Assembly (NCBI GenBank): GCA_029717555.1 | Contig: JAMDHS010000043.1 | Span: forward strand, 1-64,000 | Direction: 5' to 3' | From: Peribolospora baueri | Taxonomy: Eukaryota; Basidiomycota; Peribolosporomycetes; Peribolosporales; Peribolosporaceae | DNA: 64,000 nucleotides | Shown here: piece after piece, positions 25,766 to 27,149 of the stretch | How positions within the stretch are numbered: position 1 is the first letter of the stretch | Layout of the letters: each line of letters opens with the position of its first letter | Program-made: the position numbers and the translations under genes | The notes under the pieces: generated by a model | The model's database searches: none | What the model was told of the DNA's origin: nothing | Seen by the model: the letters and a program-made list of their open reading frames with translations, nothing else

Positions 25766-27149
25766 ATGTCCTCTTCTATTCCCCCTCCGCCTCCGACGAG
25801 GCAGCTCTCGCCCGATGACGGCCCCCTGATCTGGATCGATTGCGAGTGAGTCGCACGATCGACGGTTTCTCGATTGCTTTCGTTGGATTCTATTTCTTCC
25901 ATCCCCCGATTTGCAGGATGACGGGACTCGAGACGACGGATCGCATCCTCGAGATCGCCGTGGTCGTCACCGACGGCCAGCTCGTGCAAGTGGACGATGG
26001 GGTCCAGTACGTGGTCAAGACGGACAAAGCGTTATTGGACGGGTAGGCGTTGGTTTGCCTTTGTTGAATTTTTTTTTCCCACTCGCGCCGTCCCGATTGA
26101 ACACTAACTCTCGTCGTCCTTTCACGAATCTCTCTTGGGGCCGTCTCCCGCGCAGGATGGGCGAATGGTAGGTCTTGTCCTGTTCCGTCACTGAGAACGA
26201 GGAAACGAGCGTGACTCAGGATTGACTCCATCGACCTTTCCCCTTCCCTCAGGTGTGTAAGTGACGCCCAGCATGCGGATCTAATGTTCCCTTTTTTATT
26301 TCTGACACATGCCGCTCCACGTTGCTTGGAATCTCACTGGTTCGTCCCGTAGACTGCCCAACATGCAAAGGTGAAACTCTAAGCGTTCTACTGGCCATCG
26401 ATCAATCGGACGGCATCGGTGAACTGGGGGCGTGCTAACTCTCTTCTCTTTCGCTCTCCTCCGTCTTACTCCGTAGTCTGGTCTCACCAACCTCTGCCTC
26501 TCTTCGCCGCACTCGCTTGAGGAGGTCAGTGCCGCCGTGCTGAAGTACATCCGAGACCGAGTGCCAGCGAAGGGGGTGGCGTGCTTGGCCGGCAACACCG
26601 TCCATGCTGACAAGGCATTCCTTGCCCGTGAAATGCCAGAGGTGAGCGATCGTCGCAAGGAGAGTGGCCTCGCTCGTCGCGGGCTGACCTCCCGCTTCGT
26701 ACCGGTATGAGCCCCGCAGATCATCGACCACCTTCATTACCGCATCGTCGACGTATCGTCCCTCAAGGAGCTGTCGCGAAGATGGTATCCATCGGTCGAA
26801 TGGCGGAAGAAGGGCGGAACGGCGCATCGGTGAGCAGATGAACGGTTCCGATGTAGACCTAAGGGATGGCTGGAACACGAGACATTCGGGAGTATTGATG
26901 GGGTGATCATCCGACTTGTATTGGTGTGACTGGTCTAGGGCGTACGACGACATTCTCGCCTCCATTAAAGGTACGCTGTGCGAATTTTGAACGACCATAC
27001 TCTCATGCCACTCTCTCGATGCATTCTCAGCTGACCCTCCGGCCCCGTCTTACTTGACAGAGCTTAAGTTCTACCGACGAGCCCTGTTTCGCAACATCGA
27101 GGAAGAGGAACGGAAGCGCCTTGTTGAGCTTGCGGAGGAGTCGATTTGA
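25766..27149 (+). CDS. REX2: Oligoribonuclease (DEDDh 3'-5' exoribonuclease), nine exons including micro-exons
   Basis: Nine exons sum to 636 nt (211 residues): 25766-25845, 25917-26042, 26156-26167, 26253-26256, 26353-26370, 26477-26641, 26720-26829, 26939-26970 and 27061-27149. The protein has all DEDDh motifs: LIWIDCEMTGLE (Asp, Glu), CLAGNTVHADKAFL (Asp), and AHRAYDDILASI (His, Asp), with YRIVDVSSLKEL between. The conserved block MGEWCTAQHAKSGLTNLC, which aligns with the family's 'MDEWC..HHGKSGL', is assembled only if three consecutive micro-exons of 12, 4 and 18 nt are spliced in. Oligoribonucleases degrade 2-5-nt RNA remnants (nanoRNA) to mononucleotides; the yeast enzyme Rex2 is mitochondrial and also trims snRNAs and rRNA. 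No clear mitochondrial presequence is visible in this short N-terminus (MSSSIPPPPPTRQLSPDDGP), so localisation is open. Confidence 0.92.

What the first reader, a model, noticed from the sequence alone, without database searches (positions are those of the whole stretch)
26156..26370. Three consecutive micro-exons, one of only 4 nt, encode the conserved core of REX2
The family-conserved MGEWC--QHAKSGL block can be read only if three tiny exons are joined: 12 nt (26156-26167), 4 nt (26253-26256, GTGT) and 18 nt (26353-26370). Each is flanked by an AG acceptor and a GT donor (the 4-nt exon by CCCTCAG and GTAAGT), and the phases fit exactly: the nine exons sum to 636 nt with a stop in frame. A 4-nt exon is near the lower limit for exon definition and shows very precise intron-definition splicing.
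Basis: partly seen in the sequence, partly recalled or inferred. Interest (0 to 1): 0.78.

Follow-up and report, generated by a model that had tools for sequence, protein, structure and literature searches.

The report
Four-nucleotide exon in fungal REX2 gene
A fungal housekeeping gene (the RNA-clearing enzyme REX2) appears to be stitched from three tiny consecutive exons, one only four letters long; this looks real, and other genes of the same intron-rich genome show the same habit, so it is an extreme case of a known phenomenon rather than a new one.

Summary
Nine exons at 25766-27149 (+) sum to 636 nt and encode a 211-aa oligoribonuclease (REX2/REXO2/Orn); exons 3-5 are 12, 4 and 18 nt with GT-AG introns. 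The joined core GMGEWCTAQHAKSGLT aligns without indels to 136 of 137 homologues. The path scores 35.0 bits against at most 4.0 in 1000 shuffles. A spliced aligner picks the 4-nt exon with 136 of 137 homologues. Skipping it gives an immediate stop. The microexons carry the base-stacking tryptophan, not the catalytic residues.

The genome makes such exons elsewhere: UBC4 has a 4-nt exon too; calmodulin 7 and 12 nt, tubulin 11, actin 14, Ran 15. Exons of 5-6 bp are published for basidiomycete yeasts (PMC9142197) and 1 nt for Arabidopsis (PMC4674806). So: a new member of a known kind. No RNA data or relatives' DNA could be examined.

New details: a competing donor (CAG|GTGTGT) starts at the first base of the 4-nt exon, and donors beside small exons score low on average, so leaky or regulated unproductive splicing is possible but unproven.

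The parts
25766..25845 (+). REX2 exon 1 (80 nt), start codon, D25; ends inside the E27 codon
25917..26042 (+). REX2 exon 2 (126 nt); ends in the G69 codon (GG|G)
26156..26167 (+). Microexon 3, 12 nt GATGGGCGAATG; encodes (G)MGE and the first two bases (TG) of W73
26253..26256 (+). Microexon 4, 4 nt GTGT; completes W73 (TG|G) and encodes C74
26353..26370 (+). Microexon 5, 18 nt ACTGCCCAACATGCAAAG; encodes TAQHAK with H78
26477..26641 (+). REX2 exon 6 (165 nt); begins SGLT, holds D125 of the DEDDh motif
26720..26829 (+). REX2 exon 7 (110 nt); Y142, R143, S148 and H171
26939..26970 (+). REX2 exon 8 (32 nt); D176
27061..27149 (+). REX2 exon 9 (89 nt) with stop codon TGA
26043..26155 (+). Intron 2 (113 nt), weak donor GTAGGC
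26168..26252 (+). Intron 3 (85 nt), weak donor GTAGGT, strong pyrimidine-rich acceptor TTCCCCTTCCCTCAG (92nd percentile of 76)
26257..26352 (+). Intron 4 (96 nt), donor GTAAGT
26371..26476 (+). Intron 5 (106 nt), weak donor GTGAAA
26253..26258 (+). Competing donor-like hexamer GTGTGT (CAG|GTGTGT) starting at the first base of the 4-nt exon; its use would drop the exon and give MGE-stop

Best explanation
This is the REX2/REXO2 oligoribonuclease gene of an intron-rich basidiomycete. Four introns bound 34 coding nucleotides, leaving microexons of 12, 4 and 18 nt that must be joined to make the W-C-x-x-x-H substrate-binding segment. Inferred mechanism: each short intron (85-113 nt) is recognised as a unit (intron definition), and the introns beside the 4-nt exon are removed one after the other, because U1 on GTAAGT and the 3'-site factors on CCCTCAG cannot both bind across four bases. 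The microexons are constitutive coding pieces left between densely packed introns, not regulated cassettes, and they are one extreme of a pattern seen in other genes of this genome. Shown by sequence: borders, phases, protein match, frame consequences, similar exons in other genes. Inferred: actual splicing, its order and its constitutive nature.
For: Exact phases and a 636-nt frame. NCBIfam oligoribonuclease equivalog 213 bits against a cut-off of 106 and Pfam RNase_T. W is present in 130 of 137 homologues, C in 125, H in 136; within G69-T84 the only row with an indel is P0093. Profile score 35.0 against a shuffle maximum of 4.0; next best real GT-AG path 14.6. Aligner chose the 4-nt exon for 136 of 137 homologues. 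Skipping the 4-nt exon, or retaining any one of introns 2-5, gives a premature stop. Same genome: UBC4 4-nt exon GGCA|GTAAGT completing another tryptophan codon (AG|GGCA|GT in 1 of 20,000 shuffled gaps); calmodulin 7 and 12 nt in a row, tubulin 11, actin 14, Ran 15. Outside REX2, 10 of 62 internal exons in 13 genes are at most 30 nt and 6 at most 15 nt. Precedents: PMC9142197 (smallest exons 5 and 6 bp), PMC1184071 (6 bp), PMC4674806 (1 nt; intron definition combined with recursive, one-after-another removal proposed).
Against: No transcript of this organism was seen, and no relative's DNA was available, so intron positions could not be compared. Donors of introns 2, 3 and 5 are weak (ranks 4, 8 and 5 of 84). 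The site CAG|GTGTGT at 26253 scores higher (8.23) than the true donor at 26257 (6.56) on a small donor matrix. My aligner can invent a frame-keeping 4-nt exon: with the UBC4 acceptor masked it chose another one, score 622.7 instead of 641.9. The homologues were found with a query that already contained the joined core.
Confidence: 0.87

Rival explanations
1. Regulated or leaky unproductive splicing: the 4-nt exon overlaps a competing donor (AG|GTGTGT), and its inclusion against skipping switches between active REX2 and a truncated, decay-prone mRNA ending MGE-stop.
For: 26253 CAG|GTGTGT scores 8.23 before and ATG|GTGTGT 7.25 after intron 3 removal, against 6.56 for the true donor. Skipping the exon gives TGA at the junction. 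Donors next to internal exons of at most 18 nt are weaker than the others (15 vs 69, Mann-Whitney p 0.0012; without REX2 11 vs 65, p 0.033).
Against: No RNA data. Matrix from 76 donors only; the 18-nt cut-off was chosen after seeing the data, and the donors were placed by an aligner that itself scores donors. The trend has exceptions: donors of actin intron 1 and calmodulin intron 2, both beside small exons, rank 73 and 77 of 84. GTAAGT is a full intronic consensus. UBC4's 4-nt exon has no such nested GT, so it is not a general feature.
Confidence: 0.1
2. Chance assembly: the exon chain is a by-product of freedom in choosing splice sites, and the real gene uses other sites.
For: Short exons are easy to find: 157 of 4,000 shuffled gaps contain some frame-keeping 4-nt exon; 2,580 of 9,200 enumerated GT-AG paths stay open if exon 2's donor and the exon lengths are left free.
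Against: Score 35.0 against at most 4.0 in 1000 shuffles; no other GT-AG path of the right length exceeds 14.6; 136 of 137 homologues choose it.
Confidence: 0.03
3. Intron 4 arose by tandem duplication of exon 5, leaving a relict copy (GCCCAGCATGC, 26266-26276) behind the 4-nt exon.
For: 10 of 11 bases match exon 5, in the same codon frame (A-Q-H-A).
Against: 500 intron shuffles give p 0.068 for this one of 16 comparisons; not significant.
Confidence: 0.05

Closest known systems
Microexons of basidiomycete yeast bglA genes (Sirobasidium magnum, Rhodotorula minuta, Hamamotoa singularis; PMC9142197)
   Same: Basidiomycetes with many short introns; exons set by comparison with cDNA, smallest 5, 6 and 18 bp; 10 exons under 30 bp in R. 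minuta bglA.
   Different: bglA minimum is 5 bp, here 4 nt; different gene; here no cDNA.
Plant ultra-short microexons (APC11 1-nt exon, PMC4674806; 1-15 nt set with a 4-nt rice example, PMC8831610)
   Same: Coding exons of a few nt that annotation misses; leaving one out alters or truncates the protein.
   Different: Plants; many are conserved over land plants and some are RT-PCR-proven, while here conservation of the exon is untested.
Microexons of Phanerochaete chrysosporium P450 genes (PMC1184071)
   Same: Basidiomycete, short introns, exons down to 6 bp.
   Different: Gene family with suggested alternative splicing; no 4-nt case in the passages read.
Trichoderma virens Xlr2 microexon switch (PMC11121469)
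   Same: Fungal microexon whose inclusion changes the protein.
   Different: That one is a nutrient-regulated cassette; nothing shows regulation here.
REXO2/Orn oligoribonuclease (PDB 6n6i, 6n6a; PMC6613908)
   Same: Same protein family; DEDDh residues, stacking W, wedge L, Y-R-S of the cap present.
   Different: Phosphate-cap S111 of REXO2 aligns with T121 here (my count on the alignment).

Membership tests
Oligoribonuclease (Orn/REXO2/REX2, DEDDh) | Profile match above curated cut-off | tested here: met
   NF003765 213 bits, cut-off 106; PF00929 99.6 bits, cut-off 24
Oligoribonuclease (Orn/REXO2/REX2, DEDDh) | DEDDh residues | tested here: met
   D25, E27, D125, H171 align with REXO2 D15, E17, D115, H162 (alignment, positions counted by me; roles); D176 as the last Asp of the motif is my reading
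Oligoribonuclease (Orn/REXO2/REX2, DEDDh) | Stacking tryptophan and wedge leucine (W64, L21 in REXO2) | tested here: met
   W73 and L31 in the alignment, positions counted by me; roles from PMC6613908
Oligoribonuclease (Orn/REXO2/REX2, DEDDh) | Diribonuclease activity | not testable with these tools
   needs an enzyme assay
Microexon (internal coding exon of at most 30 nt) | Internal exon of this size flanked by spliceosomal introns | tested here: met
   12, 4 and 18 nt, all GT-AG, introns 85-113 nt
Microexon (internal coding exon of at most 30 nt) | Inclusion shown by transcripts | not testable with these tools
   no RNA data held
Microexon (internal coding exon of at most 30 nt) | Conservation of exon in relatives' DNA | not tested
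   no relatives of this genome held; only proteins could be compared
Regulated cassette microexon | Length multiple of three, or skipping tolerated | tested here: not met
   4-nt exon: skipping gives a stop at the junction; exons 3 and 5 (12 and 18 nt) can be skipped in frame

The most novel reading that the evidence does not exclude
The AG|GTGT|GTAAGT arrangement is a built-in switch: the spliceosome can treat base 26253 either as the start of a 4-nt exon or as a zero-length recursive donor. The choice, together with the weak donors around it, sets how much REX2 mRNA is productive and how much ends in MGE-stop. Ultra-short exons with weak donors may be a general splicing-load feature of this lineage.
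Probability: 0.1. Interest if true: 0.62.

Novelty: new member of a known kind. Interest (0 to 1): 0.42.

Why it matters
Besides REX2, one of 13 other sampled genes (UBC4) also has a 4-nt coding exon; both are followed by GTAAGT (9 of 84 sampled donors) and both complete a tryptophan codon. If RNA confirms them, this fungus is a compact system for asking how small an exon a spliceosome can join by intron definition. It also warns that protein sets of such fungi can lose or garble housekeeping proteins unless gene finders allow exons of a few nucleotides.

Tried and rejected
Paths with GC donors or AT/AC ends: no model with fewer exons reaches the same core. With GC donors the runner-up scores 18.0. 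Allowing AT and AC ends adds one path of equal score (35.0), which still holds the 4-nt exon and needs an extra 2-nt exon (best five paths printed per setting).

Intron birth by tandem duplication: near-copies of exon 5 in intron 4 and of exons 2-3 in intron 5 are not significant (p 0.068 and 0.086 among 16 comparisons).

Lineage: among the 120 listed hits each, the best fungal beta-tubulins are 92% identical (Meira, Puccinia) and the top REX2 hit 63% (Thecaphora). I take the organism for a basidiomycete; class not resolved. An ORF piece from the window matched PAL structures at best 55 bits, which did not help to place it. A protein search with the REX2 C-terminal part returned 20 hits and no closer relative.

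Exon counts: 13 genes besides REX2 were counted (actin, tub1, Ran, PP1, Cdc42, Rac-like, UBC4, calmodulin, two ARFs, two Rabs, 14-3-3). Terminal exons (for example the 7-nt first exon of actin and 13-nt first exon of tub1) were not counted as internal. Some alignments cover only part of the gene. The two calmodulin exons beside its odd intron were taken as ends, after I replaced by hand the aligner's reading, which held a stop there. Introns were limited to 40-250 nt by the aligner. Aligned but left out for weaker matches: tub2, a PP2A-like gene, two Arps, two Rho paralogues, one ARF, one E2, one Rab; they included aligner exons of 3, 0, 13 and 7 nt that I do not trust.

Literature: seven searches for fungal or basidiomycete microexons and small exons showed no fungal nuclear 4-nt coding exon in their listings; this does not show that none is published. 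A paper on fungal mitochondrial introns that mentions single-nucleotide exons (PMC12308204, listing only) was not opened. Papers were seen as search listings and passages (PMC9142197, PMC3990503, PMC1184071, PMC11121469, PMC4674806, PMC8831610, PMC6613908), not in full.

Full report
WHAT WAS CHECKED. The window is contig C116 of a 22.1-Mb genome in 178 contigs. At 25766-27149 (+) nine GT-AG exons (80, 126, 12, 4, 18, 165, 110, 32, 89 nt) sum to 636 nt and encode 211 aa with a stop in frame. The protein is an oligoribonuclease: NCBIfam NF003765 at 213 bits against a cut-off of 106, Pfam RNase_T, human REXO2 6n6i at E 2.5e-50. A DNA search of the own genome found this locus alone, which would miss a diverged second copy.

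IS THE EXON CHAIN REAL? The block G69-K80 reads GMGEWCTAQHAK and continues SGLT. Against 137 homologues it aligns without indels except in one protein (P0093, a 17-residue insert between D68 and G69, which may be a retained intron). W73 is W in 130 of 137, C74 is C in 125, H78 is H in 136. With exons 2 and 6 fixed, this chain scores 35.0 bits on a profile of 120 homologues; the best of 1000 dinucleotide shuffles scores 4.0. In the real sequence six GT-AG paths of the right length exist (introns of at least 40 nt) and the second scores 14.6. A spliced aligner that I wrote chose the 4-nt exon for 136 of 137 homologues and all three microexons for 135. Cautions: the homologues were found with a query that already held the joined core and are related to each other; and frame alone would be weak evidence, since 157 of 4,000 shuffled gaps hold some frame-keeping 4-nt exon, but 39 of 20,000 hold one that encodes the right residues, and none of 20,000 one with a strong donor and a pyrimidine at -3.

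WHAT THE MICROEXONS ENCODE. The catalytic residues D25, E27, D125 and H171 lie in other exons. W73 aligns with REXO2 W64, corresponding to Vibrio Orn W61, against which the bases of the dinucleotide buttress together with a tyrosine (PMC6613908, passages; alignment, positions counted by me). Its codon is split TG|G between the 12-nt and 4-nt exons. H78 lies five residues on, like H66 after W61 in Vibrio Orn; by spacing only. Leaving out the 4-nt exon gives MGE-stop at the junction. Leaving out exon 3 or exon 5 keeps the frame but removes MGEW or TAQHAK. Retaining intron 2, 3, 4 or 5 meets a stop at codon 70, 74, 106 or 84. So, on this model, the 4-nt exon must be included for a full-length enzyme.

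IS IT SPECIAL IN THIS GENOME? I located conserved genes with typed queries and aligned them. In 14 trusted genes, REX2 included (calmodulin counted in two pieces), there are 69 internal exons. Outside REX2, 10 of 62 are at most 30 nt, 6 at most 15 nt, one at most 6 nt. That one is a second 4-nt exon: UBC4 GGCA, flanked by CTTACAG and GTAAGT, with introns of 91 and 118 nt, finishing the W of FQWQATIMGP (AG|GGCA|GT in 1 of 20,000 shuffled gaps; with its acceptor masked the aligner finds another 4-nt exon at a lower score). Calmodulin has 7- and 12-nt exons in a row; tubulin 11, actin 14, Ran 15. Consecutive and ultra-short exons thus recur in this genome, with REX2 at the extreme.

HOW IT MOST LIKELY WORKS. 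The sampled introns are short (69-230 nt, median 103; the aligner allowed 40-250), the regime of intron definition. With four bases between the acceptor and the donor, the two neighbouring introns are probably removed one after the other, as proposed for the Arabidopsis 1-nt exon (PMC4674806, passages). Splicing itself, its order and its efficiency are inferred.

A POSSIBLE WEAK POINT OR SWITCH. The 4-nt exon begins with GT. On a matrix from 76 donors of other genes, the site CAG|GTGTGT at 26253 scores 8.23 (7.25 after intron 3 is removed), the true donor TGT|GTAAGT 6.56, and the GT between them -4.9. Use of 26253 would skip the exon and give MGE-stop. Donors of introns 2, 3 and 5 rank 4th, 8th and 5th weakest of 84; that of intron 4 ranks 19th. 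Donors beside internal exons of at most 18 nt are weaker than the rest (15 vs 69, p 0.0012; without REX2 11 vs 65, p 0.033), though two of them rank 73 and 77 of 84. The cut-off was chosen afterwards and donor placement is not independent of the score, so this is a lead.

COMPARISON WITH WHAT IS KNOWN. Smallest exons of 5 and 6 bp, set by comparison with cDNA, and ten exons under 30 bp in one gene, are reported for basidiomycete yeasts (PMC9142197, passages); 6 bp in Phanerochaete P450 genes (PMC1184071, passages); 1 nt in Arabidopsis; a 4-nt exon in rice validated by RT-PCR (PMC8831610, passages). Fission-yeast work on intron definition is cited by PMC11121469 (passages), but that original (PMC86406) is not held. 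The case is therefore a new, very small member of a known kind. My searches listed no fungal nuclear 4-nt coding exon, which is not proof of priority.

LIMITS. No RNA, no relatives' DNA, class of fungus not resolved (top REX2 hit 63%; best fungal tubulin 92%).

Noticed in passing
L023:718-721 (G000:C93, UBC4 gene): A second 4-nt internal exon (GGCA, then GTAAGT) in the UBC4-type E2 gene, with a 19-nt exon next to it.
   Followed up: partly
L024 reverse strand, about 1504-1649 (G000:C162, calmodulin gene): A calmodulin intron that gives a 149-aa protein without indels against the query if read with AT-AC ends (ATGAGT...CAGCAC, 146 nt); an AT-AG reading gives one extra Thr. It lacks an obvious U12-type donor (ATATCC, recalled), so it may be a U2-type AT-AC intron.
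   Followed up: partly
L024 reverse strand 821-827 and 995-1006: Two consecutive microexons (7 and 12 nt) near the start of calmodulin.
   Followed up: partly
window 23202-23690 and probably up to 25045: A phenylalanine ammonia-lyase-like gene just upstream of REX2: one ORF piece matches PAL structures at up to 55 bits; the extent is my reading of the ORFs.
   Followed up: no
window 26266-26276 and 26408-26423: Near-copies of exon 5 in intron 4 and of the exon 2/3 junction in intron 5; not significant by shuffling.
   Followed up: yes
P0093 (Amylostereum chailletii protein): A 17-residue insert at the place of REX2 intron 2, perhaps a retained intron, hinting that this intron position is old.
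   Followed up: no
window about 19780-19900: Simple tandem repeat seen as repeated HIPHPTS / CGMWDVG stretches in the translated ORFs; position approximate.
   Followed up: no
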